DNA of 52,192 nucleotides from a virus, in the IMG/VR virus record IMGVR_UViG_3300046167_000237, positions 1-52,192 of that record, one strand, 5' to 3'. Shown here piece after piece: positions 3,276 through 50,990 of this stretch. The notes beneath the pieces are model-generated. The model was not told where the DNA came from and searched no databases. It was given only the letters and a program-made list of their open reading frames with translations. Each line of letters begins with the position of its first letter. The first letter of the stretch is position 1. The position numbers and the translations under genes are program-made.

Positions 3276-3289
3276 GGGAGATTATACAC

Positions 3290-8156: not shown

Positions 8157-8412
8157 CAACAACGAAATCGCAGAGCGGTTTAACGTGTCACCAAATACGA
8201 GCAAGGTTTATGTGAGAAGTATTGCTCGGAAATTAGATGTGCAAACAAGAGCGCAGATCGTGGTGAAGATGTTGGATGTGTTCAACGAATTCGATGACAA
8301 CAGCTATCGCATGCTAACTGGTGGACTGCCGAAAGATTGGGATCAAAATTACGCGGAACCCGATCCATTCGCAAACTTATACCGCGTGGAGAGAGGAGAG
8401 GATGACACTTAA
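7969..8412 (+). CDS. LuxR-type helix-turn-helix protein
   Basis: 147 residues with an AGAGGA ribosome site. The N-terminal 20 residues form a short coiled helix (MDRIEWKLDQILGALMVK). The central region (FTTKQHAALQMLLRGADNNE, then IAERFNVSPNTSKVYVRSIA) matches the four-helix LuxR/GerE DNA-binding fold. No sensor domain is present, so it is probably a stand-alone DNA-binding protein. It overlaps the integrase start at 8402 by 11 bases, which suggests co-expression and a possible role in controlling integration or acting as an accessory factor at the att site. Confidence 0.8.
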   Translation: MQTQMDRIEWKLDQILGALMVKAFDAPSSGEVSPTATTRHHVEMPQFTTKQHAALQMLLRGADNNEIAERFNVSPNTSKVYVRSIARKLDVQTRAQIVVKMLDVFNEFDDNSYRMLTGGLPKDWDQNYAEPDPFANLYRVERGEDDT

Positions 8413-9426
8413 ATTAAATCTACGAAACGATGTCTGGCAGGTAATGGGTACTGTGATCACGCCAGAGGGAGAGAAAGTCAGGGTGAGGAAATCAACTGGC
8501 TTTACCAAACACCAAAAGCAATATGCGAGTGCCGCAATGTCTCGCATATTGCACGACGCAATGAACGGATCGGCAGTCGAGAACGATGCCACGTCTGTTG
8601 ATGATGCCATCCGTCTGTATCTTACCCGGCCTAACCCGCCGGGAAAGACAGACGCCGTTGTCTTGAGTGTTTTCTCCAGAGCCATGGGGAAGAACGCCGC
8701 TGAATTGTTTGCAGGTGCATGAAGTTATGGCGCATGTGAATGGAAGGGGTAACAAGGCAGGTACGGTTGCGCGTGAACTGAATAGCATCAATGCAATGCT
8801 TGCACATGCGAGAGACATGGGTCTGAATGCACCAGACTTTCGCTTGAAAAGGCCAAGTGTGGATGATGCGCGGTCACGTTGGTTGACTGAGGATGAAAGG
8901 GACAGGCTAATTGCGGCCTGTTCAGACGAGATACGTGGGCTTGTGACGTTCCTGTTTTATACGGGGTGTACGATTGGCGAAGCGTTCTCGTTGAACTGGC
9001 AAGATGCGCGTGGGGGAAGAGCATTCTTTACGCGCAGTAAGGGCAAGATGCGTAAGCGTCGGACAAGGGCAGTGCCTTTGACTGGCGAGGCGCAGACAGC
9101 CATGGGTGCAGACACAGGTGGACTTGTGTTTACACGGCCAGATGGAAGTGAGTGGGAGCGCAATGCGTTCTACGCTTTCTTTCACCCAAGCTGTATGGCG
9201 GCAGGGATCACGGACTTCACAGCCCATGATTGTCGGCATACCTTTGCGTCTCACCTTGTGCAAAAAGGGTGCGTCGTTGAGAGCGGTGGCTGACTTGTTG
9301 GGTCATACATCGTTGGCAATGGTGATGAGGTACAGCCATTTGGCACCAAGTCACCTGAGTGACACCGTAAACCTCTTAGGGTGTGGTGGCACAAAAGCGA
9401 CACACAGTACTGAAATAGCCATATAA
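8402..9426 (+). pseudogene. Tyrosine recombinase (integrase), frame broken twice
   Basis: Three consecutive frames together make a normal-sized phage integrase of about 340 residues. Breaks fall near 8705 and near 9270, where an extra G in CAAAAAGGG separates HLVQKG from ASLRAVADLLGHTSL. Catalytic parts visible are the beta-hairpin Lys region (TRSKGKMRKR), HDCRHTFASHL (His-x-x-Arg), GHTSLAMVMRYSH (His and nucleophile Tyr). The first catalytic Arg, expected at TGCRIGEA, is a Thr (TGCTIGEA, about 8967). Broken frames plus the missing Arg suggest inactivation unless both are sequence errors. It directly precedes the tRNA-type att site. Confidence 0.8.
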
Positions 9427-22383: not shown

Positions 22384-25300
22384 TCAATAAGATTTGCTCC
22401 AACTAGACTGCCATCCGCCTGTGTTGCCGCTTGAGGCTTCACCTGCTGTAGCGTCTACAATCCCTTCGCGGATACGTCTGTTGCCGCCGAGGATTGGAAT
22501 ACGGGTTGCGACCTCACGCATTGCTGAACGCTCTTTGGAGTTGCTGTTGTCACCTTCATCGAAGATGCCAGCAGTCACCTGCATTCCTGCATTGCCGAGA
22601 CCAAATGATGGGCCAAGAACAGTCGACCACATACGCTGTTGACCGTATGCACCGTTGTCTACTTGGCTCACTGCGGAGTGAATGACGTCGCCGAGCAGAC
22701 CAAAGCCGCCCATAACCATCATACTTTCTACATACCAGCCGAGGAAATCATTCTCGTCGCCATGCACTTTCTTGTCATAGCCAAGTGCTTTGAGAACATT
22801 CCTCTTGCGCAACTCTGGGCTGCGGTCATCTTCACCGCCGCGCATCTGGATCATGTCTTTTGCAGACAATGTAACGACGCCGAACGCTGGCCCGACAGAC
22901 GCAAGATACATGAGCGGTCTGAAGTTGCCTTGGTTTGCTTCGCTCAGTATGTGGCCTGTCATCCGTGACATCATCAGCGGGAAAGACTTCAGTTGGAATA
23001 CAAGTTGTCCAACAGGCGTCTGCGCCCACATCGGGATGTCGTTGGGGTTTGGCTGGAAGATAGCGTCGTCTGCGAACTTGATGACACCCATACGAACAGT
23101 GTCGTCTGACTGCATCAATGCCCGGTTGCCAAGGCTTTCCCCGGCGCGTTTTGCTCCGGGTAGGAACTCAGCTAGACCGTAATTCTTCAAGAAGCGGTGT
23201 GCCGTCTTGTATTGTGCAGACTGCTGCGCGTATGGAACGCCCGTCTTGAAGGTATCGAATGCTTTCTGCTGCATGGTTATGAAGGTTTCATAGCCAGTGG
23301 CACCTGCAATCATACGGTTCATGTCTGTCCACGGTGTGAGCAATGTCGCGTTGAAGAATGCGTGCGAGGCTTTGTTGTCTGGCGCACCGTACAGGTGAAC
23401 CATCCGCTCGTGTACAATGTTCTCCATGGCCACGCCGACGTTGCGGATCATCTCTCTGTATTGTGGGTCTTTTAGTTCTTTGAGGCTTTTTGCCCAAGAC
23501 TTAAAAGAGCCAGAGCGAATGATGGGCAAGCCCAAGTCACCGATAGATGTCAGGGTGGTAAAGCCAAGCAGGGAGACATTGTTAAAGAAGCGAAGCGAGC
23601 GTGACACTTTCATGCCAGTCTTGTTTGTGCCGTGCATTGGCTTCTTCATCAGAATACGCATGGCGTTATCTACATACTCTTCACCTTCATCGTATGCGAT
23701 AGAGCCAGCCTTGCCTTTGAAGTCGTTGAGTGCGCCGACAATCGCATCCACACGCTTGGCATAAACAGGATTTACCTTTCCGTCTGGGCCAAGTGTGGCA
23801 ATGTCCATCAACATCTGCCGCGCCCCAGCGGGGCCAGATGTGTTAGCGACTTCCATCAGTTTATCTACAAACTCGGACGCTTCTCCGTTGTCGCCTTGGA
23901 ATGGCATGCGAATTGTGTCGACCAAAGAAGCTGTCTCTTTGCGACCCTGCGGGTTCATCGCTGTGATGTCATATTCGAACTGCTTGTTCTTTGTTAGCAG
24001 TGCAATGATACCTTCCCGACCTTCTCTGCCGACAGTCATGTAGTCAGAGACCGCGTGGCTATTCACACCGAAGCGTTTCGCAGACGTCAGACGGCGGGAG
24101 CTTCCCTCCAAGTATTTAACGAGGATTGCTTCGAGGTCGTCTTCCAAGAACTTTTCTAGTTCATCTAAAATCCCTGTTTCTGCGTACTTATCAAGTTCGA
24201 TAACACGGGAGTAATCTACGTTCTCAAACGTAGAGTTCTTAGTTGTACCTTTAACTGGGATGAACACACCTTCTTCTGTCTCATCAAGCAGCTTGAGCAT
24301 GATGCCTTCAGCAAATGCGTTGGCCTCCGCGTCTGTGTAATCTGCGCCCATGTTGTTACGCTCGATCCCATAGTACCGCTTCATCTTCTCGATAAATTCT
24401 GCGCGGTTCTTGTGAATTGCTTTCTGGTTCCAGACTTGTGGCAAGTAGTTGGGGCCACGATTGCCTACATGGAAGCCTTCTTTGATAAGCTCGTTGCGCT
24501 CATTGGCTAGTGTCGCTCTGATTTGGCGGTAGATATTACGCTCGTCTGCGCTCAATGCCTTCTCTTGGCGAGACCCGTCGCCCCGACGCAATGCACGGAC
24601 AATACGGCCATAGGATTTAGGCTGTTCTTGCCCGATGCTCGCAGACGCCTTACGGAAATAACCGCGAAGGATACCGTCTGTGTCTGGCAGTGCAGCCAGC
24701 TTGTCAGCAATCGGCATAAACTTCTTTGCAAACCGCTGGTTCATATCAGGGTAATGCTCTTTGTACTTGTCACCAAGCCAGTGCATCCCTTGGTTCTTAA
24801 TCCGGGTCGACAGACGCTCAAAGTATTTGAACGGGCCAGCCTTGCGGACTGCCTGCTCTTCACTCGGAGACATGTTACGCTTGCGCATCATGGACATGAC
24901 TGCGCCAGTGATCGTGCTGTTCGTGCCTTCTTGCTCAAGAAGCTCACCGAATTGTCCAACTGGGATTTCGTCGATGCTGGAAACGCTCTCGTCCATGACA
25001 GCGTTGATGATGTCGCCGTTCACACCCTTTGGAATGGGGCGGTCAAACTCCATGATGCTGTTGTAGATCATCTCATCGTTGCTATCGAAGTAATCAGCGT
25101 CGATATGCTTGGCTTGCTCTGGGTTAAACAAGACCGCAGACGTGTGGGTTGTGGAAGATGCACGATATGTATCGCCATTCGCCATAACATCTTCGCCATC
25201 AGCCAATGAGTTGCGATGTGTCGTAAGCATGCCGTCATAGCCAAGGTCGTCTAGGATGCCCGTTAGTTCTTCCTGCGCGGCTGCGCGGTTACGGCCAGAC

Positions 25301-27000
25301 TTGATGAGTGAGTTCACCAGTTCGCGATACGCCGTTGTGCCATCGACCTCGACGCCTCCCATGGCGTCTTCGATGTGACGGAAGGTGCGCTCGCTCGTGT
25401 TACCGACCTCGTTCATCTTCGCCATGATTGACTTAACCATGGGGTGGCTTGCGCTGTATGACGCGGTGTCTCTGAAATCGACAGGCGTGTTCAGCTTGAT
25501 CACCATGGGCATGACATATGGGTCAATCGTAAGGCCACGCTCAGACAAACTCTCAGCTATGGCTTGTTCGTTTGCCACCAAGTCATCGAGGTGATCGCGG
25601 AACGCATCCAGTGTGCCAGTTGTAACGTCTGGGTTTATGCCAAGTTCATCTTCAAGTGCGCTAAACTCGCGGCGTACCTTAGAGATTTCGCGGCGTGTCT
25701 CCACCATATCCCAGATGTCCCAATCAAGGTCTTCCTTCTCGGCAGTTGGCAGGCCAAGCTCTTCAGCCTGCTGGAACATTGCTTCGACAGTCGGGCGTTT
25801 TGCATAGACTTCGCCAGCTACGTGCGGGTTTGCCGTTAGGTAGTAGCCGGGGCCATAGTTGCCGCCCTGCGAACGCTTGAAGATTGCATTCGGGTTGTCG
25901 TCTGTACGACGGAACACGTACCCTTTGGGTGTCCCGTGGTAGAAGACGTTTGGCGTCTGCGATGCTTCGTCAAAGCCAACGCCACCCTTAGTAAAGTTTA
26001 CAAGGTTAGCCATGCGAGGCTTGCTTGCAGAGTTTATCGCGTCTTGTGCGTAATCTGCCGCGTATGATGGATGTGCAAGGACACCGCCATCGAGCGAGCC
26101 AATCATCGGACGCTTCTCACCACTCTCGAACATATCACCGTACAGTGTCAGGCGGCGATAGCGACCTTTTACATCTGTGCGTCCAATCTGCCCGTTGGTA
26201 GCGTAGGCTGTGTACTCAATCGTGCGATCAATAGCACGATCTAAGGTGCTTCTCATGCGGACGTTGTTCGTATCGCCTGTGATTACACCGTCTAGGATTT
26301 GCGAGCGAGGCATTTCTTCGCGTGTGTAGCGATTGACTGCATCAGAGAACCATTCCTCTGCTATTGCCTGCTCACGCACGAACTCTGAGCGGTCTGCGTA
26401 TTTGCTTCCGATCAGACCCTCAATGCGGTTGCGCATTGTGCTGTCTAACGAGCGGTATGCTTCGACGATTGCTTCGCTTTCTTCTGGCTTCAGTGCGCCA
26501 GAGCGGACAATCATGTGCATCAGACCACCGATTGCTTCATCTGGTTTGCCATCGCCCTTGTTGAGTGCGGACGAAATGCGGCGAACCTGTTTGCGGAATG
26601 CGTTGAAGTCGGTTCCTCGGTAGTCGCCGAATACGCCGTCACCTGCAAAGCTCGGATCGCTACCTGCCAGACGTGACATGTCAGCAGTTCCAATCAAGTT
26701 TACGCTGTCTTCTCCGCCGCGAGATGTCTTACCGATAATGTTGTACAGGCGATATGCCATAGTGCGTGTTACGTTCTGTACGTCTGCGTCCCGGTGGGTC
26801 ATCAGAGACAGGTTCTCACGTACAGACGCACGGGCTGCGGCAGGCACGCCGTCAAGAGATGTAACACCTACATTGTCATTAACTTCACGCATGATCATCA
26901 GGCTGCTTTCGCGGAATGTGCGAGATATAATCTTGCCGCCAGTCTTGCGAGCCTTCTTCTTAGCAACGCGATACTGGGTTTCCCACAGTGCTTCATTCAA
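22384..27000 (-). CDS. Giant polyvalent/ejection protein, C-terminal part with ART-like domain
   Basis: About 1,538 residues from the TTG at 27000; the 21 upstream residues in this frame shadow the previous gene. Near residue 350 there is an ADP-ribosyltransferase-like motif set: VFYHGTPKGYVFRRT, GPGYYLTANPHVA, then MPMVIKLNTPVDFRDT, as in ART domains of phage polyvalent proteins. The rest is helical and very large, with segments such as KFFNNVSLLGFTTLTSIGDL late in the protein that may touch membrane. It probably enters the cell with the DNA. It likely forms one polypeptide with the two upstream frames. A single continuous gene would be about 3,270 residues. Confidence 0.7.
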   Translation of the reverse strand: MNEALWETQYRVAKKKARKTGGKIISRTFRESSLMIMREVNDNVGVTSLDGVPAAARASVRENLSLMTHRDADVQNVTRTMAYRLYNIIGKTSRGGEDSVNLIGTADMSRLAGSDPSFAGDGVFGDYRGTDFNAFRKQVRRISSALNKGDGKPDEAIGGLMHMIVRSGALKPEESEAIVEAYRSLDSTMRNRIEGLIGSKYADRSEFVREQAIAEEWFSDAVNRYTREEMPRSQILDGVITGDTNNVRMRSTLDRAIDRTIEYTAYATNGQIGRTDVKGRYRRLTLYGDMFESGEKRPMIGSLDGGVLAHPSYAADYAQDAINSASKPRMANLVNFTKGGVGFDEASQTPNVFYHGTPKGYVFRRTDDNPNAIFKRSQGGNYGPGYYLTANPHVAGEVYAKRPTVEAMFQQAEELGLPTAEKEDLDWDIWDMVETRREISKVRREFSALEDELGINPDVTTGTLDAFRDHLDDLVANEQAIAESLSERGLTIDPYVMPMVIKLNTPVDFRDTASYSASHPMVKSIMAKMNEVGNTSERTFRHIEDAMGGVEVDGTTAYRELVNSLIKSGRNRAAAQEELTGILDDLGYDGMLTTHRNSLADGEDVMANGDTYRASSTTHTSAVLFNPEQAKHIDADYFDSNDEMIYNSIMEFDRPIPKGVNGDIINAVMDESVSSIDEIPVGQFGELLEQEGTNSTITGAVMSMMRKRNMSPSEEQAVRKAGPFKYFERLSTRIKNQGMHWLGDKYKEHYPDMNQRFAKKFMPIADKLAALPDTDGILRGYFRKASASIGQEQPKSYGRIVRALRRGDGSRQEKALSADERNIYRQIRATLANERNELIKEGFHVGNRGPNYLPQVWNQKAIHKNRAEFIEKMKRYYGIERNNMGADYTDAEANAFAEGIMLKLLDETEEGVFIPVKGTTKNSTFENVDYSRVIELDKYAETGILDELEKFLEDDLEAILVKYLEGSSRRLTSAKRFGVNSHAVSDYMTVGREGREGIIALLTKNKQFEYDITAMNPQGRKETASLVDTIRMPFQGDNGEASEFVDKLMEVANTSGPAGARQMLMDIATLGPDGKVNPVYAKRVDAIVGALNDFKGKAGSIAYDEGEEYVDNAMRILMKKPMHGTNKTGMKVSRSLRFFNNVSLLGFTTLTSIGDLGLPIIRSGSFKSWAKSLKELKDPQYREMIRNVGVAMENIVHERMVHLYGAPDNKASHAFFNATLLTPWTDMNRMIAGATGYETFITMQQKAFDTFKTGVPYAQQSAQYKTAHRFLKNYGLAEFLPGAKRAGESLGNRALMQSDDTVRMGVIKFADDAIFQPNPNDIPMWAQTPVGQLVFQLKSFPLMMSRMTGHILSEANQGNFRPLMYLASVGPAFGVVTLSAKDMIQMRGGEDDRSPELRKRNVLKALGYDKKVHGDENDFLGWYVESMMVMGGFGLLGDVIHSAVSQVDNGAYGQQRMWSTVLGPSFGLGNAGMQVTAGIFDEGDNSNSKERSAMREVATRIPILGGNRRIREGIVDATAGEASSGNTGGWQSSWSKSY

Positions 27001-30000
27001 AGGTTGCTTTATCACCTTCGTAAATCGCACGAAGTAGTCTGTCTTCGAGTGCCGCACCGCCAAGCTCCATGATTTCTCTGCGAACTGGCACAGCCTTGGT
27101 TGGCAGAGGCGCAGCTTTTACTTTCGCAACTATCTCTGCCGCCACCTGATCGCCATAATCTGTACCGCGATGCTTGCGGAAGTCAGACTGTAGTTTCTTC
27201 AGCGACAAGGTTTTGACTGTATCTGCTACAGTTGGGTCTACGTTTGGCTTGTTCTTGCCAGTGTTGCGTGCGCGTTTGTTTTTCTGCGTCTTCGTATCGG
27301 CAGTTGCTTGCGCTGTTGTGCGGTCTTCTTTTGCCTTTTTGGCCTTGGCTGCTTTGCGCTTGGTGCCAGAAGGTGTGACGTTGCCGTCTGCACGAACTGG
27401 TGGCTGCGCTCCGCCTGTTACAGACGCAGGAACTGCACCAGTTGGTAGTTCAGCTTTGCCCTCTGCACGTTGATAACCAGCACCCAATGATTTGCGGACG
27501 CTTTCGATCATATGTTTGACGCTAGATTTCTCTAGCTTCTTGATCTGCCCCGGTACGCCATTGGCAGGAACGAACTTGCCAGCATAACCGTTGTAGTAGA
27601 AGTCGCGCAGCAAGTCTGCGACAGCTTGTGGGTCTGCAATCTCTGACATGCCAGAAAACTCGCCGCCTTCAAGGTAGCGTCTGGCTTGCGCCGCGTCGTC
27701 AATGCTGGTCAAATCTGATGGCTTGCCGCCAATGATTTCGTCGAGTGCCTTGAGCTTTTCATTCAAGACCTTCAGCATCGTCTGCGGCTGACCTTTAGGT
27801 GAGCGCAAAGCCAGTAATGGGCCAGAGCCACCAACACCGGGCAGAACCTCTTCGCTATTTCTGCCGACGCCAAGGATGTATTTACGCAATTCATCAAAGG
27901 CAGTGATGATCCCGTCTGCGCTGTCAGACGCAAACGCGGATTCGATGTCCTGCTCGATCATACCAAGCTGAACGTAGCGTTTCTGTATTGCTTTCCCTTC
28001 TGGCTTCTGAGGTGCTGCGTCTACCCCCAGTTGGAATGTACGCTCTTCCGCACGGTTCGGAAGTATCTTAGCGAACAGAGGCTCAAGGTTCGGGTCGATG
28101 CTTTCTTTGGCGAAAAATCTATCAAAGACTGCTTGAATATACTGCGTCATACGACGCCAGAATGACATGTCGCGGATGGCTACGTCTGAGTGGTTTTGCA
28201 TAGCCCACATAGCGAACTGATTTGCAAAAAACTCTTGGGGGTTTTTTGTCGTGTTCGTTGTTAAATTACCGTGTGGGTTTTCCATGCCAGTAAATGCAGG
28301 CAGACGGTCTTTGACCGCGCCCATATCTAGCTGACCTTTGGTGTTGTAGTAAGTACCCATATGCTCCCAGAACTCTACGCGGTCTTCTGGGGTCAGAATG
28401 TTACGATACGCCCAATGTGCCACCTCGTGATATAATGCAGCCATCTTAGGCTGTATTAGTTTTCTGGATGGGTCTGTGTTGATGTTAATGTACTGGCTTT
28501 CGGGCGCAGTAACTGATTGGATTTGCGTTTGAGCAAAGTAATCTCCACCGCTGTTCCCACGAATACTTGGAGCAATAGCAGGGTTGCCGCCTAGCTGTTG
28601 TAATAGCTTGCGAGCGTTGGCTAGTTCTTCCGAAGAAAACCCGTCGAAGGTATGTTCAACTGCGCTGATTGCGTCTTTTCGTTGCCTGTTTGCTGTTATG
28701 TAGCCGTTAGGATTGGCACGGTGCATCGCGCCATAAAGAGTTCGCAAAGACTGTGCGATAGTCCTTTGTCCCTCTACGGTCTTTGGCCAGCCCATCTTTG
28801 TGTCTAAGTAGTCAGTAGCCCAACGTAGCTTGGCAAACGGCACAATGTTGTTGTTGATCTTGTCAGTGTATCCGACGCCCCGTGCGGCTTGTGTATATAC
28901 AGCAAGCTCGTCTGGAGTTAGCGTCACTTCAATTAAATCTGCATCGTCGACCATCAACGGATCGCCAAGGCCAGTGGTGTTTCCACTGTTGAAGCGGCCA
29001 CCTTCGATTGGCTTTGTTGTTTCTTCTGGCAAGCTGTCGAACAGAGCTTCACGCGCACGCTGAGTGCGCGGGTTTGCATCCATTGGCGCGTAGCGCACAT
29101 CCCAGTTTTCATAGACGGATGATGACTTTTTAGGGTCTTGGCCAATAATGGCGAAGATGTCCTTGCCGTCCTCGATCTGCTTCTTGCTCATAATCCTGAT
29201 GTCGTCAGGGTTTTCTTTTGAGCGGACGATCAGCTTCTTATCGCCACGAGATGGAGCAGGTGATGGCTCCGCAGGTGTAGCTGGGTCAACAGCTACTTCT
29301 GGTTTCTTACCTTCTTTCCGCGCTCTCAGTTCTTTGAGCAGAGTATCGACGTCTGCCTCGCCATCGCCAGCGTATTTTGCAAGTAGGCTTTTTAGAGTTT
29401 CATCCACACCTTTTTCTGGTGCAGCTTGCGTTGCTTTAGGCTGTGCAGACGGAGCTTCGCCGCGAGCTTTCAGTGCGAAGTCTCGGCTGGAGAATGAACG
29501 TCCAGTGACAGCGTCTGCCCATGCAGTCGCGCCCTTCTTAACCTCGACAAGACCGCCCGGAGCGAATACTTTCTCGGCTCCAGTGGTTGTGTAGGGTACA
29601 AGGTCTGGCCCCTTGCCAGAGTTTGCACGAAGCATTGCTTCTTCACGGCCAAAATCTGCTGGGCTTGCGTTGTACCCACTAGAAACAGTGTAATCTGATC
29701 CTTTAGCAATACGTGTTCCACGGCGCAGAATACCTTGGATTTTGCCAGTGGCTGCGGAGCGGCCTGCTGTTGTATATACGGTCTTCTGGTCGATACCTTT
29801 TTGTGCAGACCGCATGCCTGATGACGACTTGTTGCCACGCATCTCAGTGATACGCGCCTCTGCCATAACAGTCAGAGCATCATCACTCGCATCTGGCATT
29901 TCTTTCTTGTACTGCTTCTTCAGTCTCGCGATCTGCTTGAGTTCAGTCTGAGTGAAGATGTCGCTACGGCTTTCGTCGATCATTGTAGAGCGACTGATGT

Positions 30001-30097
30001 CGTACTCGGCTAAAGCCAGAAGGTCGTCGAGGTCTGTCTCGAAGTCTGACGCACGACCAAGCAGAGCAACGCCAGAGCGTATGTCGTCTGCGTCCAT
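26993..30097 (-). CDS. Giant polyvalent/ejection protein, middle part with zinc metallopeptidase motif
   Basis: About 1,034 residues from Met at 30097 (an upstream extension to 30172 shadows the previous frame). It is Ser/Thr/Ala/Lys-rich with long low-complexity linkers. Near residue 557 there is HEVAHWAYRN, an HExxH zincin site, and about 65 residues later NPQEFFANQFAMW supplies a third acidic ligand. This is a metallopeptidase domain, as found in large phage polyvalent proteins. The C-terminus is Lys/Ala/Thr-rich and runs to TGA at 26993, where the next frame continues. It is probably a segment of a single giant protein. Confidence 0.7.
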   Translation of the reverse strand: MDADDIRSGVALLGRASDFETDLDDLLALAEYDISRSTMIDESRSDIFTQTELKQIARLKKQYKKEMPDASDDALTVMAEARITEMRGNKSSSGMRSAQKGIDQKTVYTTAGRSAATGKIQGILRRGTRIAKGSDYTVSSGYNASPADFGREEAMLRANSGKGPDLVPYTTTGAEKVFAPGGLVEVKKGATAWADAVTGRSFSSRDFALKARGEAPSAQPKATQAAPEKGVDETLKSLLAKYAGDGEADVDTLLKELRARKEGKKPEVAVDPATPAEPSPAPSRGDKKLIVRSKENPDDIRIMSKKQIEDGKDIFAIIGQDPKKSSSVYENWDVRYAPMDANPRTQRAREALFDSLPEETTKPIEGGRFNSGNTTGLGDPLMVDDADLIEVTLTPDELAVYTQAARGVGYTDKINNNIVPFAKLRWATDYLDTKMGWPKTVEGQRTIAQSLRTLYGAMHRANPNGYITANRQRKDAISAVEHTFDGFSSEELANARKLLQQLGGNPAIAPSIRGNSGGDYFAQTQIQSVTAPESQYININTDPSRKLIQPKMAALYHEVAHWAYRNILTPEDRVEFWEHMGTYYNTKGQLDMGAVKDRLPAFTGMENPHGNLTTNTTKNPQEFFANQFAMWAMQNHSDVAIRDMSFWRRMTQYIQAVFDRFFAKESIDPNLEPLFAKILPNRAEERTFQLGVDAAPQKPEGKAIQKRYVQLGMIEQDIESAFASDSADGIITAFDELRKYILGVGRNSEEVLPGVGGSGPLLALRSPKGQPQTMLKVLNEKLKALDEIIGGKPSDLTSIDDAAQARRYLEGGEFSGMSEIADPQAVADLLRDFYYNGYAGKFVPANGVPGQIKKLEKSSVKHMIESVRKSLGAGYQRAEGKAELPTGAVPASVTGGAQPPVRADGNVTPSGTKRKAAKAKKAKEDRTTAQATADTKTQKNKRARNTGKNKPNVDPTVADTVKTLSLKKLQSDFRKHRGTDYGDQVAAEIVAKVKAAPLPTKAVPVRREIMELGGAALEDRLLRAIYEGDKATFE

Positions 30098-32207
30098 GAC
30101 TGTCGCCTTGCGCATCGAGCAGATCAATAATGTCATCAAGTTCTTTGCGAGCTTGCGTGGCGTAGGGATCAATCCCTGCGTCAGCTTTTCGTGTGCGGAT
30201 GGCTTTGCTGACGACGCCTTTGGTAATACGGTTATTTGATTTTGCGCTGGGCGTTAGACTGCGCCAGTCAAGACCTTCAGCCAAGGCACGACCACGTAGC
30301 TCCATCGAAATCTCTGGAGCATTACCAGCGGCGTCCAGACCGTTGCGGCTACTGTACAGCTTGGCTAGTTCGTCAGCTTCTGCATCTGTAAGGCCAGACG
30401 CATTCGCCTGTGCGCGGATAGCATCAAGAAGCTCAAGGGGATTGTCGCGGAATGCCTCGTTGCCAAGGTCGACTTGTGCAAGGACGCCTTCGAGCTTTTC
30501 GTCAGGTGTTAGTTCTTTGGGGCCAAGTGCTTTCTGGATGTCCCGACCGCCTTGAGCAATCTCTTTGATCGTTCGGATGTCAGAAACACTAGAGCGGACA
30601 AGCTGTCCTCTCTTGCCTGTCGATACGCGACCGCTTTCTATATCGCGTGCAAGGTCTGCTTCTGTGTAGTCGCCATCAAGAAGTGCGCGGACTTTGGTTT
30701 CTTGTGTGCCAAATGCAATCGGCTTGGTTTCAGCCGCTGGTTCGGCAGACGCTTCAGGTGCAGCTTCAGGTTCAGGAGTTGCTGGTGCGTCTGTCCCTGG
30801 CGCAGACGTAGTTTCCATCGGCCCGTCTGTGGACGGCGCGTCTGTCATAATTTCTGTTTCCGGCGGAGCTTCAGCAGCAGGTGCCAATTCACCTTCGGGT
30901 GCGTCTGGCTCGGCCTCTGGTGTCTGGCGCATACCAAACCCGTCTCGCTCCATACGTGCCAACATTTCGTCTGGAGTTAGGCCGTCAGAAGTTTGCAAGA
31001 CCCGACGAACTTGAGACATGTAGTCTTCGTAACGACGGCGCATGTCTCGCGCTTTGTTTATGTCAGCTACGTCGTTGGACTTTTCTAGTTCTGCAATTTG
31101 TTTCGCTTCGCGTTCGGCACGAGCAACTGCTGTGCGTAAAGCGGCCATGTCAGCAGTCTCGTTGACTGCATTGTTTATTGTTTCTGCCTCTGCACCAGAC
31201 GCACGTATTCTGTCTAAGTGTGATCTGGCGGCTGTAGTGGCGGCATTGAGTTGGCTTGTTACGTCAGCAAGATCGCCAGCAAGATCGCCAAACTCAGCAG
31301 TGTTAAGTGTAGTCTGTGGTGCGGCTTCGGCTGCGGGGGCTTCGGGGGCAGGTGCTTCGGGCTGTGGCTGGCTAAACTGATCGACGTCACGAGTGCCAAC
31401 CGCTAGTTCATCTAACGCGCGTGTGCCACCTCGTTGCAAGGTTTCGAGAATTTGCGTGTCTGACAAACCCTTGGCACGCAAGCTATCAATGTCAGCCACT
31501 CCTTGCCGTGCGCCAGCAACAGATGAAGGCAAACCAATCGCGCCACCAACACCCGCTCCCAAAACACCACCTGCCAATGCAGATAAGCCAAGCTCGCGGC
31601 CACTAAAACTATCTCGTGCGCCTGTCGCGATGTCTCTAGCCTGACCCGCCGCGTTCACGATTGCTTCTTGTCCACCAGAGATTGCGGCTTCCGAGCCAGC
31701 GGCTCGTGCTGTACCAGACGCAACGCCTCGTGCTACGGGTGCAGACTTTCCAGCCGCATAGGCGGCTCGTGCTGATGTAGCCGCGCCTTTGTAACCAGCA
31801 ACACCGGGAATGAGGTTAAGTGGGTCTGCCACAATCGCTGTCGCGATGTCGCCAAGTGCGCCTGTACCTCGGCCACCTTCTTGCCAGAAGCTAGGGAGTT
31901 GTCGATACACGCTGTCAATACGGCGCATTCGTTCGCGCTGCTCTGGAGATGCAGTAGACGCTTCGAAGGCATCACTCACAGCACCAACTGTGTTTAGATC
32001 GCCCCAGTTCTGATCAGAGTAAAACGCATCAATCAGATACTTGTCGTCTGCGAAGTAACGACCTTTATCGTTGTAGTAAGCGCGTAGGTCTTTCAAAAAC
32101 CTTGGGTCTTTGAGGATTTTCTGTGGGTTTACAGACGCTGAGTAGTCGGCTGCGGGTGCGGACTTGAACGCATTAGGGTCAAGATTGCTGTTCTTAAATA
32201 AGCTCAT
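29964..32207 (-). CDS. Giant polyvalent/ejection protein, N-terminal part
   Basis: About 700 residues are meaningful, from the ATG at 32207 to the junction near 30110; after that the frame is a shadow of the next ORF. The start MSLFKNSNLDPNAFKSAPAA leads to an ordered region (WGDLNTVGAVSDAFEAS), a Gly/Ala-rich hydrophobic stretch (ALAGGVLGAGVGGAIGLP), then Ala/Pro/Glu repeats (EAPAPEAPAAEAAPQ) that form linkers. At 30110 the sense passes from KELDDIIDLLDAQGDS to MDADDIRSGVALLGRA in the next frame. The membrane-like stretch suits an ejected virion protein. Confidence 0.7.
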   Translation of the reverse strand: MSLFKNSNLDPNAFKSAPAADYSASVNPQKILKDPRFLKDLRAYYNDKGRYFADDKYLIDAFYSDQNWGDLNTVGAVSDAFEASTASPEQRERMRRIDSVYRQLPSFWQEGGRGTGALGDIATAIVADPLNLIPGVAGYKGAATSARAAYAAGKSAPVARGVASGTARAAGSEAAISGGQEAIVNAAGQARDIATGARDSFSGRELGLSALAGGVLGAGVGGAIGLPSSVAGARQGVADIDSLRAKGLSDTQILETLQRGGTRALDELAVGTRDVDQFSQPQPEAPAPEAPAAEAAPQTTLNTAEFGDLAGDLADVTSQLNAATTAARSHLDRIRASGAEAETINNAVNETADMAALRTAVARAEREAKQIAELEKSNDVADINKARDMRRRYEDYMSQVRRVLQTSDGLTPDEMLARMERDGFGMRQTPEAEPDAPEGELAPAAEAPPETEIMTDAPSTDGPMETTSAPGTDAPATPEPEAAPEASAEPAAETKPIAFGTQETKVRALLDGDYTEADLARDIESGRVSTGKRGQLVRSSVSDIRTIKEIAQGGRDIQKALGPKELTPDEKLEGVLAQVDLGNEAFRDNPLELLDAIRAQANASGLTDAEADELAKLYSSRNGLDAAGNAPEISMELRGRALAEGLDWRSLTPSAKSNNRITKGVVSKAIRTRKADAGIDPYATQARKELDDIIDLLDAQGDSHGRRRHTLWRCSAWSCVRLRDRPRRPSGFSRVRHQSLYNDRRKP

Positions 32208-36084: not shown

Positions 36085-37944
36085 TTAAGCCCTCATTACA
36101 TTTTGTGCGAACGCAGATGGTGCCAGTGTATTCCCGTACTCCTCCTCCTCTTGATCAGCCAACATTTGCATGTATGCCTGCAAAGTTACTGGATCAACTT
36201 GGGAGAAGTCTTGGAACTCAGGGACACCCGATGCACCCACGGTTGAAAGGATTTGCTCTCTAGCGATGCGGTCGCGCTCTGTCACCGCTTCTTCGTCACG
36301 CTCAAGTCTTTGCCGCTCTGAGTTCAAACGGTCTTGTGCAGACTGGATTTCATCAAGAGCTTGCTGCGCGTTGTAAAGTTCTACTTCAGCATTCAAAGCG
36401 TCAAACTCTCCTTGGTTCCCGCCAAGATCGTCTGTGCCATAATATGAAGCATTGTTTACCTGTTCGAGCAGTGCTTGTGCGCGTGTTTCAAGAGCGGTGC
36501 GTGCCTCGTTTAGCTCGTTCATACGCGTCTCGATTGCACCTGCGGCTGTATCAAGTTGACCACTGATGTCGCCAACTCTGCCACCTGAGAACCGAGCAAG
36601 ATCACCACCTGCGTCTGTAAGCTGTGACGCCAGATTGCGCATGCCAGTCTCATCGTAGGCTTCGAGGTCTGTCAAAGCAGAACCTGATGCCCCGGTGATT
36701 TGAGACAAGATGCTATCAAGTGCTTCCTGACGCTGCTCATTCAAAGAAGCCAGAGCCACGTCTGTGTCACTCAATGCGCCAGTCGTGTCGCCAAAGTCGT
36801 AGTCTAACTGCGATGTGAAGCCGCCAATGTTCTGGCGTAAATCACGAAGCTGGTCTTCCAAGGCGTCAATGCCTGCCGCGCTGTAGATACTGCCAGTTTC
36901 TGCTGACCCCTCTAGGGCGCGTGCTTGGTTGAGATAGTCACGTTCTGCACGGCTAATGCGAGATAGCTCGTCCTGACGCTCGCCAGACAACTGGTTTACG
37001 TCGCGAAGCAAGTCGCTTAGTTCGCCTGTCTCTTGGTTGAAGTCAAAGCCAAGCTCGGATGAGAACCGACCTGCCTGACGATTGCGGTCTTCGATCTGGC
37101 TGATGAGGTCGTTGATGCCAGTCTCGTCTGCGATTGTCAGACCGCCTAAAGTATTGCGATAGGCGTCTGCGTCAGTGAGCAAGCCTTGCTCGTAAGTATT
37201 GATGCGGTCTAACTCTGCCTGCCTTTGATTGCGAAGATCGCCAAGACCTTGCGTCAAACCAGAGTATTGACTGTCGAACTGTGTGAACCCGTCTGGGAAC
37301 ATTTGATTTAGGATGGGAGATGAGAAACCTGTGCGGCCAACATTGAGTGCGGAGAGGTCGCGCTCTAGCTGGTTCATCTGGTTCTCGTCTGCAATCCCCA
37401 GTTGGCCTAGCTGAGTGCTAAAGCCAGCGAGGCTTCCCAGCCCTTGGTTGCGATACTCGTTAATCCGATTAACTTCGTTATCTCGTTCACGTTGCAAGCC
37501 GCTCAATGTTCCTGACAAGCCAGAAACATTGTTCATAAGGTTGTCATACTTGTTGGTATTGAGCTTCAACAAGTCTGGGATGTTCGTAATGCCGACGTTC
37601 CCGTACTCGCTCGAAACACTGCTATCAAATGTCGGCTTCTCAAGATCAAAACTCAGGTTGCCCAAGCCTGATGAGAGATTTCCGATTTGCGTGTTGAAGC
37701 CAGCGTAAGGGTTTTCGTTTACTGCGGTTGTAGGATCATCATAGAGGTCAGCATAAGTTAAGCCACCAACGCCACTTGATAAGTTGGTGAAGGTGTTGCC
37801 ATAGCCTGATAGGCTATCATTGTAGCTTTTAACGGCCTCGTTATACGTGTCCGCTTTTTTCTTGTAATTAGCCTCGGTGTCGAGACGGATTTGTTTTTTC
37901 TCTGCCGTATAATCGGGTGGTGGAGCTGGACTGGACTTACCCAT
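36085..37944 (-). CDS. Virion protein with internal repeats, 619 aa
   Basis: Begins MGKSSPAPPPDYTAEKKQIR. From about residue 150 to 430 a unit of roughly 80-90 residues recurs: a Leu/Gln-rich helix with RQxELxRI (RNQRQAELDRINTYEQGLLT; GERQDELSRISRAERDYLNQ; LNEQRQEALDSILSQITG), then an IADETGINxL-type stretch and a Ser/Phe-rich FxSxLxFDF strand. The ending is acidic. Probably an internal virion or tail structural protein. No family is recognised; it is not a collagen-type fibre. Confidence 0.6.
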   Translation of the reverse strand: MGKSSPAPPPDYTAEKKQIRLDTEANYKKKADTYNEAVKSYNDSLSGYGNTFTNLSSGVGGLTYADLYDDPTTAVNENPYAGFNTQIGNLSSGLGNLSFDLEKPTFDSSVSSEYGNVGITNIPDLLKLNTNKYDNLMNNVSGLSGTLSGLQRERDNEVNRINEYRNQGLGSLAGFSTQLGQLGIADENQMNQLERDLSALNVGRTGFSSPILNQMFPDGFTQFDSQYSGLTQGLGDLRNQRQAELDRINTYEQGLLTDADAYRNTLGGLTIADETGINDLISQIEDRNRQAGRFSSELGFDFNQETGELSDLLRDVNQLSGERQDELSRISRAERDYLNQARALEGSAETGSIYSAAGIDALEDQLRDLRQNIGGFTSQLDYDFGDTTGALSDTDVALASLNEQRQEALDSILSQITGASGSALTDLEAYDETGMRNLASQLTDAGGDLARFSGGRVGDISGQLDTAAGAIETRMNELNEARTALETRAQALLEQVNNASYYGTDDLGGNQGEFDALNAEVELYNAQQALDEIQSAQDRLNSERQRLERDEEAVTERDRIAREQILSTVGASGVPEFQDFSQVDPVTLQAYMQMLADQEEEEYGNTLAPSAFAQNVMRA

Positions 37945-37947
37945 AAC

Positions 37948-38361
37948 TTACCTCTCTAGCCATTTGCATTCTGATCGGAGTTGTCCGAAGACAATGCCAT
38001 CTTTAGGGTTGAAATAAGATCGAAGCCGTCCTTCTTCTTTGAAGCCAAGACCTCGCAGAAGTTTGATCGACTTTCGGTTACTTTCGTTGACGAGCGCGGA
38101 AATTCTAATACATCCGCACTGGTCGAAAACGTATTCGTAGAGCAACTTGATGTAGCGTCTGTGCCACCAGCAGGGGTCTGTGGTGACGACGCTGACGTGG
38201 ATGTCGTTGCCCGTGTATTCTGTGAACACGACTGCACCAACAAGATCACCGTGTCGCTCAAAGCCAAACGCTTGGAAGTTTGCCCATTGGACATTCCCTT
38301 CAAGTTTTGGCTTTGCCCATTTTGCAACGCGGTGTTTGTCATCTGTTATTACCTCAATCAT
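37948..38361 (-). CDS. GNAT-family acetyltransferase, 137 aa
   Basis: The fold is clear: WANFQAFGFERHGDLVGAVV, FTEYTGNDIHVSVVTT, then WWHRRYIKLLYEYVFDQCGC and the terminal NESNRKSIKLLRGLGFKEEG, RLRSYF. NESNRKSIKLLRGLGF is the usual GNAT motif for the last helix and strand. GNAT enzymes transfer acetyl groups from acetyl-CoA to an amine. In phages such genes beside virion proteins may modify the virion, but no substrate is visible. It stands between a tail fibre and the repeat protein. Confidence 0.8.
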   Translation of the reverse strand: MIEVITDDKHRVAKWAKPKLEGNVQWANFQAFGFERHGDLVGAVVFTEYTGNDIHVSVVTTDPCWWHRRYIKLLYEYVFDQCGCIRISALVNESNRKSIKLLRGLGFKEEGRLRSYFNPKDGIVFGQLRSECKWLER

Positions 38362-38364
38362 TAG

Positions 38365-39924
38365 CTAGTCAGAACACTGACCGCCATTGTGACCTTCAAG
38401 CGCAGAGCCTGATGAGTTGTTGGTTACGATAAAGCCAATAGATTTAGATGCTGATGTCGCATCCACTTCGATTGGCGTGCCGATGGTGAACTCGTTTACT
38501 GTTGAGCTTACGCTGTATGTACTTCCAAATCCTGTGCCATTGACCGCCACTTGAACTGAGCAAGTGCCTGATGTCGTCTGCAAGGATAAGCCGTCAATCT
38601 GTATCTTCTGCTTGAAGATGCGTTTGATCGTGTAGGTGGTGATTGGCCGGGGTTGCGACTGTGTCGTAGAAGCTGTCACTCGCCAGTAATGAAGGAAGCT
38701 GAGATGAGGGCAGCCGTCCTGTACTGTCGAGTGATGCAACACCATTGGCGGCACCCTTTTGGGTGACGGCAATCACAGACGACAAGTCGACTGTACCATA
38801 TTCTAGCGCGGTTCCAGTGCCGTTTACTTTTACGAACTGTCCAGAGTTTGCCGTTGTGAATGTAGGCAGAGAGCTTTCTGGTGACGTTTTCAGCCACTGG
38901 GTGCCATCGTAGAATTTGAGTTGGTTTGGGGTGACAGACGTATCATGCCACAAGTCGCCCGTTGCAGGGCCGCTTGGAGATGTGGCTGATACTGTGAGTT
39001 TTGCTTTTGCCCCAAGGTCTGTCGTCAAGCTGACGACTTTTGCCTGTGGGATAGACGCGTTGTCGATCTTAATCTTTGCGAGTTGGATCAGGCCGCTATC
39101 TGTATGAACGTAATCTTCCTCGAACATCATGCCAGTAACAGCTTGGACAGATGTGTTCTCAACCGTGATGATTGAGATTGTGTTGCCCGATGCCACGTTG
39201 CTGTTGAAGGTTACAGTGTTGGATGATGGCGATGTCGTATAGTCGTTAGCACCACCCTCGCGCTGTAGGATACCGTTCTTGTAAACTTGCAGCTTGGTGT
39301 TCTCGTCGTGGACAAAAGGCGAACACAGCTTGGCTAGAAGTTGTGTCAGTGTCTGAGCGGTTAAAGCCAGTGATGGCTGTAGCACGTACCTTGAAGACGC
39401 TGACAACGTCGCCTGCGGATAAGCCGCTGTTGAATACAACTGCGCCTGCGCTCGATGTCCCGCCGGAAGCGTTGGTTGTGTAGTCGAAAGATGATCCGTT
39501 ACGCTTCAGAACGCCGTCGACGTAAACCAGTAGCTCGTCTGTGGCATCGTGAGCAGTAATCAAAGCTGGTTTGTGCAGACGTGGCTGTAAAGTCTACACG
39601 ACCGAATAAGATAGGTGCGCCGATTGTACCAAAGTCTTGGCCAGACGGGCCACGCAAGTCTGCCGCTGCGACCAGTGTGATCCAGCCGTCTGTTGTGTTT
39701 GAGTATTCGCCGACGCGGTACTCAATGTCGCCGCCTGTATTCTTTTGAAGCTCGATAGGGCCATCGAAGTTGCCGTTGGCATCAAATATTTTTGCAAGCA
39801 ATTCGCCAACTGTGTTGTTACCCAACTCAGCAGCGTTAAGGTATCTGATGACACCTTCAAATTCGTTGTTAATGTTCCCGCTTGAGCCGTAGTTCTGGGG
39901 GAATTGTTGTCTAATACGAGCCAT
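38365..39924 (-). CDS. Tail fibre, frame broken at least three times
   Basis: Three overlapping frames read as one fibre of about 510 residues. The first begins MARIRQQFPQNYGSSGNINN and runs to TSAQTSF near 39560; the next resumes at ITAHDATDELLVYVDGVLKR and runs to about 39340; the third continues with LAKLCSPFVHDENTKLQVYK to about 38600; the last frame holds TTYTIKRIFKQKIQIDGLSL and ends near 38365. The repeated VYVDGVLK, LQVYKNGIL and GSSFDYT/NDYTTSP pairs show a duplicated beta domain. It probably binds the host surface. Confidence 0.65.
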
Positions 39925-39925
39925 T

Positions 39926-41437
39926 TTATGTCCTCACGGTCACTGCGAAACCGATAATGCGAAGCAGACCACCGCCTCCTTGTGTTTTGATGCGGTACTG
40001 AGCCGCGCGATAACGGTGTGACCACTTGCGTTCATACTGTTTGGATAGTGGCACATCCTCGAAGTAGTTGTCGTCCGAGGTGTCATCTACCTCGAAAACT
40101 AATGAGCCTAGCGTTCGACCATCTTCGTCTTGGGCGTCCAAGGTGATAATGCCCTTGCCAGACGCCTGTATAATAACGCTTTGCGTCTCCTTCGTTTCTT
40201 CAAGGCTCCCATGCCAAAGCAGGGGGGTGACAACTTCCATATCGGGGGTAAACGCGTTTTCATTATCCTCCTCGACCTTGAGAACTTCGTACAATCCACC
40301 CGTCGTTCCATAGACGAGCTTGCCATTTAAGAATGACCCACAGCGTGCGTTGAGAAAGTCGCCTGTGTTGAACTTCGGCACAGCCTGACCGCCCTCTGGG
40401 TTCATAGCCAGAGTTAGGCGTTTGCAAAGCTGGCCTCCTGCTTGTGGGAAGAAGACGTGGTATTGCGCAGTGTCTTGGTCAAAGACCGCGCTCAATGTTT
40501 CGGGGTTCTCGACGGAGGCAAATAGCTCGCGATAAAGCAGGTCTATCTTGTCCGACAGGCTGTAAGAATACACGAGTATCCCGTTGTCCTCCGACCGTTT
40601 GATCGAATGGATACCAGACCGCGAGCAGTATAGGAGGTCTGTCCCTGCGTTCGCGATAGTATTGTGACTGATGCAGCCAATGTTGATGTTCGCGTTGTCG
40701 TCTATTACCCATCGGTCAATATCCGGGTCTATCCTGTAAATGATGCTTCGGTCAGCAGTGAACACCACGAGACGGTTCTGTTCGAAAGTCCCAAGGCCAG
40801 TGATCTGATCAGCAGTCCCTAACAAGTTTGCTACGTCGATGAAGCCAGCGCGTAAAACATTTGTGCTGGCTGGGTCTTCATCATCGGGGAAGAGTTCGTC
40901 TTGGTCTACCCTACTCAAATGCACCTGTGTTTCACGCCCCGGAATGCCAGCCACAGCCAGACGACGCTGCACAGACGTGACGTATGCAGGCAACATATTA
41001 TTGATCGAGGGAGACTGGTTGCGTGTGAACTGAATGCCGTTATAGCGATACATTGGACGCGAACGAGCAGCCAGATGCACAGACTGGTTGAAGACTGTGC
41101 TGGTAACGATAGCCGCCGTAGGATGTACGTTTTCCAAGACGTGGTCACGCTCTGACTTAAAGTTCAAGCCAGAACCAGTTTCCTCCACCCAGCAGACTTC
41201 GTCTGAGCCAAAGAAGCGGGTGTGGTTTACCTTGAACTCGCCCTTGCGAAACTTGCATGAAGCGTCACGCACCATCTGTCCTCGCCAGTCAGACGAGGCG
41301 TTGTTGATCTTGGTGACGTGCTGGTCTTTGCCAGTGTCTAGGCTTGTGATGTCGCGAGAAGTGTCGAGACCTTGAAAGTTCTCGTAAGCAAAAGTCCTTG
41401 CCTTTATGCCGCTGCGTGACTTCGTCGTGCTAGTCAT
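39926..41437 (-). CDS. Tail or neck beta-propeller-like structural protein, 503 aa
   Basis: Reads as an all-beta protein with recurring blade-like segments: RLVVFTADRSIIYRI, DLLYCSRSGIHSIKRSED, AQYHVFFPQAGGQ, NGKLVYGTTGGLYEVLK. The C-terminal part (TPLLWHGSLEETKETQSVII) resembles the end of podovirus stabilisation or tail nozzle proteins. Such proteins close the tail tube. The gene is coupled to the adaptor gene by a TAATG overlap and follows the usual order capsid, adaptor, nozzle. Family membership is inferred. Confidence 0.6.
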   Translation of the reverse strand: MTSTTKSRSGIKARTFAYENFQGLDTSRDITSLDTGKDQHVTKINNASSDWRGQMVRDASCKFRKGEFKVNHTRFFGSDEVCWVEETGSGLNFKSERDHVLENVHPTAAIVTSTVFNQSVHLAARSRPMYRYNGIQFTRNQSPSINNMLPAYVTSVQRRLAVAGIPGRETQVHLSRVDQDELFPDDEDPASTNVLRAGFIDVANLLGTADQITGLGTFEQNRLVVFTADRSIIYRIDPDIDRWVIDDNANINIGCISHNTIANAGTDLLYCSRSGIHSIKRSEDNGILVYSYSLSDKIDLLYRELFASVENPETLSAVFDQDTAQYHVFFPQAGGQLCKRLTLAMNPEGGQAVPKFNTGDFLNARCGSFLNGKLVYGTTGGLYEVLKVEEDNENAFTPDMEVVTPLLWHGSLEETKETQSVIIQASGKGIITLDAQDEDGRTLGSLVFEVDDTSDDNYFEDVPLSKQYERKWSHRYRAAQYRIKTQGGGGLLRIIGFAVTVRT

Positions 41438-48343: not shown

Positions 48344-49771
48344 TATTTTGCCTCCAATTCTGCGACACGTTCTTTAATGCCTTAATCTTTTTATGTGCTT
48401 CCTGCAATGCCGCCACTAGGACAGGCGTGATGCGTCCGTAATCCATAGACATCATCTCTTCGCCATCAGGATCACCTGATACAGCCTCTGGAACGATCTC
48501 CTTGCATTTCCTGTGCGATAAAGCCGACGACTGCGTCTGCTTCTGGGATCAGCTTTCCACGTGTGCGTGACAGGCTTCATAGCCATCAGCTTGTCTGTGG
48601 CATCTGCAATAGGCTGAATGTTGTCTTCAAGCGGCGGTCTGAGGTGGTGTTGTAGGTTGTGCCAGAGGTGGTTACGTCGATGGAACCAACGTCCGTGTTG
48701 TTTTTTTGAAGCCTAATGCATTCACCATCGGTACCATGCCTCGCAGCAATAAGTGCGTGGGTGCTAGATGAACCAATCATTATGCCGCTTGTGCCATAAA
48801 TCTGCACACCAGTCCCATCAGTGTGCGGGTTTGGCGAGGCAGTGCCGGGAAACATAAATTGCCCGGTGCTAGTCACTCGCATCCGTGGATTACCATCTCC
48901 ATCAGACAGCACGATTTGATTGTCTGAGGCGCGGATGTCTAGGCCGCCTTGGTTGCCGTTGTAGCTACCAAGGATAGTGTTTTTTTGGCCTGATGTTATT
49001 AATTTACCAGCGTCTTTCCCAATGTAAGTATTGAAGCTTGAAGTTGAAATTTCACCAGCATCGTTGCCGATAAATGTATTAGATCGGCCTGAAACATTTG
49101 TGTACCCAGCCTGACACCCAACCGCTGTGTTGCTAGGCCGCGGTAGTAGAGTTTAACGCCTGTTTACCAACGCCGACATTGCCTGTGCCGTTTTCTATTT
49201 CAATAGTGCCAGAAAGGAAAAGATTATCCCATTGGATGCCAGTATTTCCTAAGTCTACACTAGCAACTGTTGGAGTCATTTGAAGGTTGCCTGTCCAATC
49301 ACTGTTGTATAGAGCAACAATGTTTTGGAGTTCAAGATAACGAGAGCCAGACGTTTTTATCTCAAGCTCATTAGTTGCAGTCCCAATACTCCCCACCGTT
49401 AAGCCGTCTTTGGCAAACTCAATAATATTACCGTCAGCAGTAAGTCTGTTTATGTAGGCAGGGGTGTTGTTGCTACGGGTTACAAATAAAGTGTTATCAG
49501 CCCTTAACTCTATGCCAGAAGTGCCAAATCCTGTGGCAAGCTTACCCACGAGCAAGTTACCGCTTTGATCCAGCAACATTCTCGTGGTGTTGTTCGTATC
49601 AAACCTTAGATTGCCAGTACCTGTTTCTTGGATATGGCTGTCGCCAGTGCCAGCGTCATGGAATATAGCTAAGTCTAAGCCAGTGCCGAAATACAAACCA
49701 CTATTGTCGGTGATTGTCGCAGAGCCAGTTAAGTAAAGACCAGTAAGCGTCAGCCGTGCTGCGTGGCTCAA
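48343..49771 (-). CDS. Tail fibre C-terminal part with S74 self-cleaving chaperone, frame heavily broken
   Basis: The first 210 residues are a fibre of repeated beta units (LYFGTGLDLAIFHDAGTGDS, NLRFDTNNTTRMLLDQSGNL). Past 49145 another frame carries VGCQAGYTN and IGNDAGEIS-type repeats. The Peptidase_S74 intramolecular chaperone starts at TTSDRRLK (near 48640), with the Ser and Lys of the self-cleavage dyad, and continues in other frames: IQPIADATDKLMAMKPVTHT, PEAVSGDPDGEEMMSMDYGR, ITPVLVAALQEAHKKIKAL. Four or more shifts fall within 250 bases here. The chaperone trimerises the fibre and cleaves itself off. Confidence 0.7.
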
Positions 49772-50443: not shown

Positions 50444-50990
50444 TTATGCCAGCCAACTGTGTTGACGTTTGCTATGTTGGTGGCCGTTGTATTTACGTTC
50501 GCTATGTTTGTAGCGACTGTGTTTACGTTGGCTATTGATCCGCCAACAAGGTCTACGTTTGTAATTGAATTAGCGACCGTGTCAATTTCTGAAGTGGCTT
50601 CATTAAGGTCGTCTGCGGCAGTTATGACTGCGGCGATGTCGTTCGCTACCGTCTGCAAGTTGTTGTTGTCGATCTCGTCTGCAACAGTCTGCAAGTCTGC
50701 CACGTTGGTAGCGACGGTAGATACGTCTGTGTTGTTGTTTGCGACTGTAGTGACGTTGGATGCTATGCCAGCTACCGTTGTAACATTGGCGGAAATGCCA
50801 GCAACTGTTGTTACATTCGATGCGATGCCTGCAACAGTGGTTGTATTTGCTGAGATACCTGCAACTGTTGTGACATTACTGTCTATGTTTGCGACAGATG
50901 TTACGTCTGCTGATATGCCAGCGACAGTGTTTACGTTCGATATGTTTGTTGCTGTTGTGTTTACGTTGGCGATTGCCGCCGCAACAGTGT
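50260..50990 (-). repeat. 30-base tandem repeats encoding NVTTVAGISA
   Basis: The DNA repeats with a period near 30 bases, encoding NVTTVAGISA or NVTTVAGIAS and variants. Copies differ at several positions, so the array is old or under selection. It crosses a frame break near 50440. Confidence 0.8.

What the first reader, a model, noticed from the sequence alone, without database searches (positions are those of the whole stretch)
22384..32207. A single giant ejected polyvalent protein (about 3,270 aa) carrying both a zincin and an ART-like domain
Three open frames in a row (32207-29964, 30172-26993, 27063-22384) join without loss of sense at about 30110 and 27000: the C-terminal extensions and N-terminal extensions at each overlap are shadows of one another. 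The joined protein has an HEVAH zincin with a later Glu, an ADP-ribosyltransferase-like FYHGTP...GPGYYLT module, a Gly/Ala hydrophobic stretch and long linkers. Polyvalent proteins of phages are believed to be injected to act on the host at once. A metallopeptidase and a transferase in one injected chain is a potentially new effector arrangement.
Basis: partly seen in the sequence, partly recalled or inferred. Interest (0 to 1): 0.75.

Follow-up and report, generated by a model that had tools for sequence, protein, structure and literature searches.

The report
Giant phage ejection protein with effectors
Three adjacent reading frames in this marine phage contig are one gene, broken only by base errors, for a protein of about 3,270 residues that is probably injected with the phage DNA and carries a peptidase-like and an ADP-ribosyltransferase-like module; this is an unrecognised member of a kind of phage protein known since 2017.

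Summary
Frames 32207-29964, 30172-26993 and 27063-22384 are one gene. A 94%-identical relative (L002) has a single 3,270-codon frame, and the window carries one extra base at about 30103 and one at about 27002. In all 93 related viral loci examined the gene is one frame (33 complete frames, 3,148-3,591 codons). The window also has at least seven frame changes in four other genes, so the breaks are almost certainly sequence errors.

The protein has an N-terminal Gly/Ala hydrophobic stretch, an HEVAH zincin-like module, a second HExxH module that is degenerate in this clade, an ART-PolyVal domain with conserved His-Tyr-Asp, and a C-terminal 830 residues related to phage T7 gp16 (ejection protein). 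The closest solved fold to the ART part is a cyanophage A4 pre-ejectosome protein. Best reading: a gp16-type ejection protein with a polyvalent effector block in front of the gp16-like core.

Metallopeptidase plus ART in one virion protein is not new: Iyer et al. (2017) described it, including in Roseovarius Plymouth podovirus 1, where I re-detected both. What is new is modest: recognition of this giant gene in the CRP-810 family (annotated there as three genes), its gp16-like core, and its paired zincin-like sites.

The parts
22384..32207 (-). whole giant gene (about 3,270 codons in relatives; three frames in this contig)
   Evidence: single 3,270-aa frame in L002; one frame in all 93 relatives
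30104..32207 (-). coding part read in frame 1 (N-terminal ~700 residues)
   Evidence: GGAG ahead of ATG
27003..30103 (-). coding part read in frame 2
22384..27002 (-). coding part read in frame 3
31509..31592 (-). Gly/Ala-rich hydrophobic segment LGLSALAGGVLGAGVGGAIGLP..., candidate membrane segment
   Evidence: hydropathy scan; conserved in relatives
30186..30311 (-). E3-binding (PSBD)-like motif
   Evidence: motif in many relatives; PF02817 over cut-off in L061; 4 of 22 members match, window itself does not
28100..28780 (-). zincin-like module 1: HEVAH 28429-28415, third-ligand Glu in QEFFANQF 28237-28214
   Evidence: invariant H, E, H, E in A5; weak fold match Z 6.4 to M34-type zincins
26341..26529 (-). 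zincin-like site 2, degenerate here (GGLMH instead of HExxH; Glu helix AEEWFSD kept)
   Evidence: related to module 1 by hhalign, E 8.8e-6
25084..25944 (-). ART-PolyVal domain: FYHGTP (His), GPGYYLT (Tyr), GYDG (Asp) at 25242-25225
   Evidence: PF18760 23.3 bits here, up to 45.7 in relatives; fold match Z 10.1 to 9k3a_B
22387..24879 (-). C-terminal ~830 residues, T7 gp16-like ejection core
   Evidence: phrog_684 in window; phrog_342 to E 1.2e-22 in relatives; T7 gp16 is phrog_342

Best explanation
It is a single giant internal virion (ejection) protein of a CRP-810-type marine phage with a podovirus-like virion gene set. Its C-terminal ~830 residues are a T7 gp16-like core that leaves the capsid at infection and helps bring the DNA across the inner membrane. 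In front of that core sits a polyvalent block with one or two zincin-like peptidase modules and an NAD-dependent ADP-ribosyltransferase of the H-Y-D type. Most likely the chain is ejected before or with the DNA, the N-terminal hydrophobic segment and the C-terminal core insert at the inner membrane, and the block between them reaches the cytoplasm. There the ART modifies host proteins to favour the phage, and the zincin trims the chain or cuts a host protein. Shown here: one gene, the motifs, their conservation, homology of the core to gp16 through relatives. Inferred: ejection, topology, activities and targets.
For: One frame in all 93 relatives. Zincin 1 H-E-H-E invariant in 26 relatives and the window; ART H, Y, D in nearly all of 68 aligned rows, Y in every one with sequence there; 20 of 26 relatives match PF18760. 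C-terminal module matches phrog_342 from position 555 on in five of seven members scanned, E down to 1.2e-22, and T7 gp16 matches phrog_342 at 1,354 bits. The ART part's best solved fold is 9k3a_B, a cyanophage A4 pre-ejectosome protein identical to A-4L ORF27, which bears YHGT, GSGTYF and GVDA. BFVD matches are named 'Large polyvalent protein associated domain'. Gene order MCP, stabilization protein, fibre, three large proteins, giant gene, then lysis genes fits ejection proteins.
Against: No virion proteomics or assay exists. The window's own C-terminus matches phrog_684 but not phrog_342 at E 0.001, so its link to gp16 goes through relatives; direct hhalign with T7 gp16 is weak (probability 24%). 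The zincin 1 model is poor (pLDDT 60), Foldseek found nothing at E 0.001 and Z 6.4 lies in the range of chance matches. No T7-like transglycosylase domain was found in the chain.
Confidence: 0.72

Rival explanations
1. The three frames are three real genes, or one gene joined by programmed frameshifting.
For: The isolate CRP-810 is also annotated as three overlapping genes in this place, so splits recur.
Against: CRP-810 breaks at other places (about L002 residues 370 and 2440, the second at a 31-base tandem duplication), relatives read through all four places (38-66 loci each), internal frames start with TTG inside overlaps, and the window has at least seven frame changes in other genes.
Confidence: 0.04
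2. A real, recent pseudogene: the window's phage has lost the giant protein by two genuine insertions.
For: Two single-base extras are private to this contig.
Against: The same contig has frame changes in a tail fibre, integrase, CobS and CobT, some of them genes a phage needs; substitutions against L002 still favour codon position 3.
Confidence: 0.06
3. The giant protein is purely structural; the ART and zincin modules are relics or act only in assembly, for example a zincin that trims the chain during maturation.
For: P1 DdrB is processed before packaging and Iyer et al. propose self-processing by such zincins (PMC5512222). One of the two zincin sites has decayed in several lineages while the other stays.
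Against: The ART triad is kept across members that share as little as 22-30% identity in this domain, which a relic would not show.
Confidence: 0.18

Closest known systems
Polyvalent proteins of phages (Iyer et al. 2017, PMC5512222)
   Same: Very long chain, zincin-like MPTase and H-Y-D ART of the ART-PolyVal family, late-gene position, presumed packaging and injection
   Different: This one ends in a T7 gp16-like core rather than an N4-type RNA polymerase
Roseovarius Plymouth podovirus 1 vRNAP-like protein CBX87992
   Same: Giant (3,760 aa) protein of a roseophage with ART-PolyVal and a metallopeptidase match in one chain
   Different: Carries virion RNA polymerase domains; order is ART, then peptidase, then RNAP; little alignable sequence beyond the motifs
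Cyanophage A4 (Anabaena phage A-4L) ORF27, PDB 9k3a chain B
   Same: Pre-ejectosome protein with an H-Y-D ART-like part
   Different: 1,717 aa, no HExxH, no sequence similarity outside the ART motif
T7 gp16 (internal virion protein D)
   Same: C-terminal part related through phrog_342
   Different: 1,318 aa with an N-terminal transglycosylase; no zincin or ART
Roseobacter phage CRP-810 gp36/gp35/gp34 (PMC11288001)
   Same: Orthologue, 37-59% identical by piece
   Different: Annotated as three genes broken at other places; second HExxH intact (HEIGH)

Membership tests
Phage polyvalent proteins | two or more domains of unrelated activity in one chain | tested here: met
   zincin-like and ART-PolyVal modules in one frame in relatives
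Phage polyvalent proteins | packaged in the virion and delivered to the host | not testable with these tools
   gene position and gp16-like core are consistent
ART-PolyVal (PF18760, Tox-ART-HYD2) | profile score over the curated cut-off | tested here: inconclusive
   window 23.3 bits against 31.2; L058, L061 and L056 over it when neighbouring stretches are summed; L058 domain 45.7
ART-PolyVal (PF18760, Tox-ART-HYD2) | His in strand 1, Tyr in strand 2, Asp in strand 5 | tested here: met
   the three residues are in the window and in 67-68 of 68 rows with sequence there; His and Tyr lie on strands 310-313 and 343-347 of the model, Asp 547 right before strand 548-558
Zincin-like metallopeptidase | HExxH helix plus a later Glu on a second helix | tested here: met
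   invariant in A5; both on helices 232-247 and 301-316 of the model
Zincin-like metallopeptidase | zincin fold with the three-stranded sheet | tested here: inconclusive
   model pLDDT 60; Z 6.4, rmsd 3.7, 147 residues to M34-type catalytic domains
T7 gp16-like ejection protein | homology to phrog_342 over the gp16-C part | tested here: met
   E 1.2e-22 to 4.6e-16 in five relatives; window itself below threshold, linked through them
T7 gp16-like ejection protein | N-terminal lytic transglycosylase | tested here: not met
   no Pfam match in the chain; PMC8954989 says this domain is missing from P22-like homologues too, so it does not define the family
N4-type virion RNA polymerase | vRNAP domains | tested here: not met
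   no vRNAP Pfam domain in the family, while N4 and RPP1 ring
CRP-810-type phages | shared core genes and gene order | tested here: met
   MCP 88%, prim-pol 79%, stabilization protein 79%, AAA ATPase 76% identical; portal cut by the contig end, TerL outside

The most novel reading that the evidence does not exclude
A T7 gp16-type DNA-entry protein has been turned into an effector platform: the ART and zincin modules stay tethered between an inner-membrane segment and the gp16-C hub at the DNA entry site and modify host proteins there, with two zincin-like sites of which either may decay but never both.
Probability: 0.3. Interest if true: 0.6.

Novelty: new member of a known kind. Interest (0 to 1): 0.42.

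Why it matters
It corrects the annotation of the largest gene of a globally distributed marine phage family, where the one isolate's record lists it as three genes. It links three things seen apart so far (polyvalent effectors, ART-like folds in ejectosomes, T7 gp16) in one chain, and offers a cultured phage-host pair (CRP-810 and its CHUG strain) in which immediate effector action at DNA entry could be tested.

Tried and rejected
LPD38 (PF18857) in the window: no match, and none in controls. Search of 84,980 bacterial and archaeal genomes with the C-terminal profile: no relative by tblastn. Sequence search of the PDB with four alignments: only chance matches. Homology of the C-terminus to the N4 vRNAP C2 part: none seen by hhalign; of zincin 1 to the N4 HExxH domain: motif only. 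Programmed frameshifting: rejected, relatives read through. Mutual exclusion of zincin losses: never both lost among 34 non-redundant members, but Fisher p = 0.23 and only five loss events on the tree, so it is a pattern, not a proven rule. N-terminal 240 residues against PHROGs: nothing useful. Literature on the A4 ejectosome: not in the library.

Full report
Observation. The window is an IMG/VR virus record of 52,192 bases. Aligned to L002, the window has one extra base at about 30103 and one at about 27002, the second a TTT for TT; L004, L003 and L001 agree with L002 where they have sequence. With wider scans, 93 loci hold part or all of the gene, none in more than one frame; 33 frames are complete, 3,148 to 3,591 codons, and two cut at the contig edge exceed 3,800; 48 and 63 loci run across the two places where the window breaks. 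Substitutions between the window and L002 favour third codon positions in all three parts (71/50/146, 35/21/118, 17/7/94 at positions 1/2/3).

Why the frames break. The window has frame changes in other genes against the isolate CRP-810: three in the gp41-like fibre, two in the integrase, one each in CobS and CobT, and more in the variable gp57-like fibre. An error-prone contig explains the two breaks best. CRP-810 itself has the gene as gp36, gp35 and gp34, broken at other places, the second within a 31-base tandem duplication, and relatives read through there too. Whether that is real or an assembly fault I cannot tell.

Anatomy. From the N-terminus: (1) a conserved start with a Gly/Ala-rich hydrophobic stretch; (2) Ala/Pro/Glu-rich linkers and a small E3-binding-like motif; (3) zincin-like module 1, HEVAH with a Glu in a following helix, all four residues invariant in 27 aligned sequences, lost only in L085, L088 and L094 among those read; (4) a second HExxH-plus-Glu site, intact in CRP-810 and about half of the family, decayed to GGLMH in the window's clade. 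Profile comparison relates the two sites (E 8.8e-6, probability 83%). On a tree of the C-terminal part, site 2 changes four times and site 1 once; no member of 34 with both readable has lost both, which is suggestive but not significant (p 0.23). (5) an ART domain with His, Tyr and Asp kept in nearly all of 68 rows; (6) a C-terminal 830 residues, the best conserved part.

Structure. The zincin 1 model is of low confidence (pLDDT 60); its second-look matches are led by M34-type zincins at Z 6.4 over 147 residues, ahead of the PPEP peptidases, which fits Iyer et al.'s own profile result for this class but stays within the range where chance is possible. The model of site 2 plus ART is better (pLDDT 76.5). 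Its top match by a clear margin is 9k3a_B, Z 10.1, rmsd 3.6 over 173 residues, also Foldseek's first (prob 0.96, E 0.025). That chain is ORF27 of Anabaena phage A-4L, which has YHGT at 1425, GSGTYF at 1444 and VGVDAL at 1577, thus an H-Y-D ART-like part inside a solved pre-ejectosome. Among predicted viral proteins the best matches are 'Large polyvalent protein associated domain' proteins.

Ejection. The C-terminal module of relatives matches phrog_342 from position 555 on; T7 gp16 matches the same family over its whole length. The review of ejection proteins (PMC8954989) assigns gp16-C to a cytoplasmic DNA-binding ring flanked by membrane regions, calls it universally conserved, and lists gp16-like proteins of 609-1,337 residues; the present chain is about 2.5 times the longest. 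By analogy the block between the N-terminal hydrophobic stretch and the gp16-like core would reach the cytoplasm. This topology is inference.

Comparison with the known. Iyer et al. (PMC5512222) defined polyvalent proteins in 2017, named the zincin-like MPTase their commonest domain (one to five per chain) and reported MPTase with ART in one chain, also in Roseovarius Plymouth podovirus 1. I re-tested that protein: ART-PolyVal at 1023-1096 and a metallopeptidase match at 1254-1387. CRP-810-type phages were described as a family in 2024 (PMC11288001) with 'internal virion protein D (ORF36)' as the only named part of this gene.

Verdict. Observation confirmed; interpretation right in kind, wrong on novelty of the arrangement. 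A new member of a known kind, with an unusual gp16-like end and a paired zincin-like site worth a specialist's note.

Noticed in passing
window 37944-39926, 8402-9414, 1481-3430, 49133-51648: Further frame changes: gp41-like fibre (three), integrase (two), CobS and CobT (one each), gp57-like fibre (several). The contig is error-prone, so short frames in it should not be read as genes.
   Followed up: partly
window 30186-30311; L061 giant protein residues 503-534: E3-binding (PSBD)-like motif in the giant protein of many relatives; Pfam PF02817 at 40.6 bits in L061. It could bind a host dehydrogenase complex or DNA.
   Followed up: partly
L005:22100-22165 (CRP-810 gp35/gp34 junction): A 31-base tandem duplication breaks the giant gene in the isolate record; with the gp36/gp35 break it hides the gene as three ORFs.
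   Followed up: partly
window 1481-5276: CobS- and CobT-like genes (cobaltochelatase-like) in a phage, shared with CRP-810.
   Followed up: no
L085, L088, L094: The only members read that lost the first HExxH; all three keep the second, and form one clade.
   Followed up: yes
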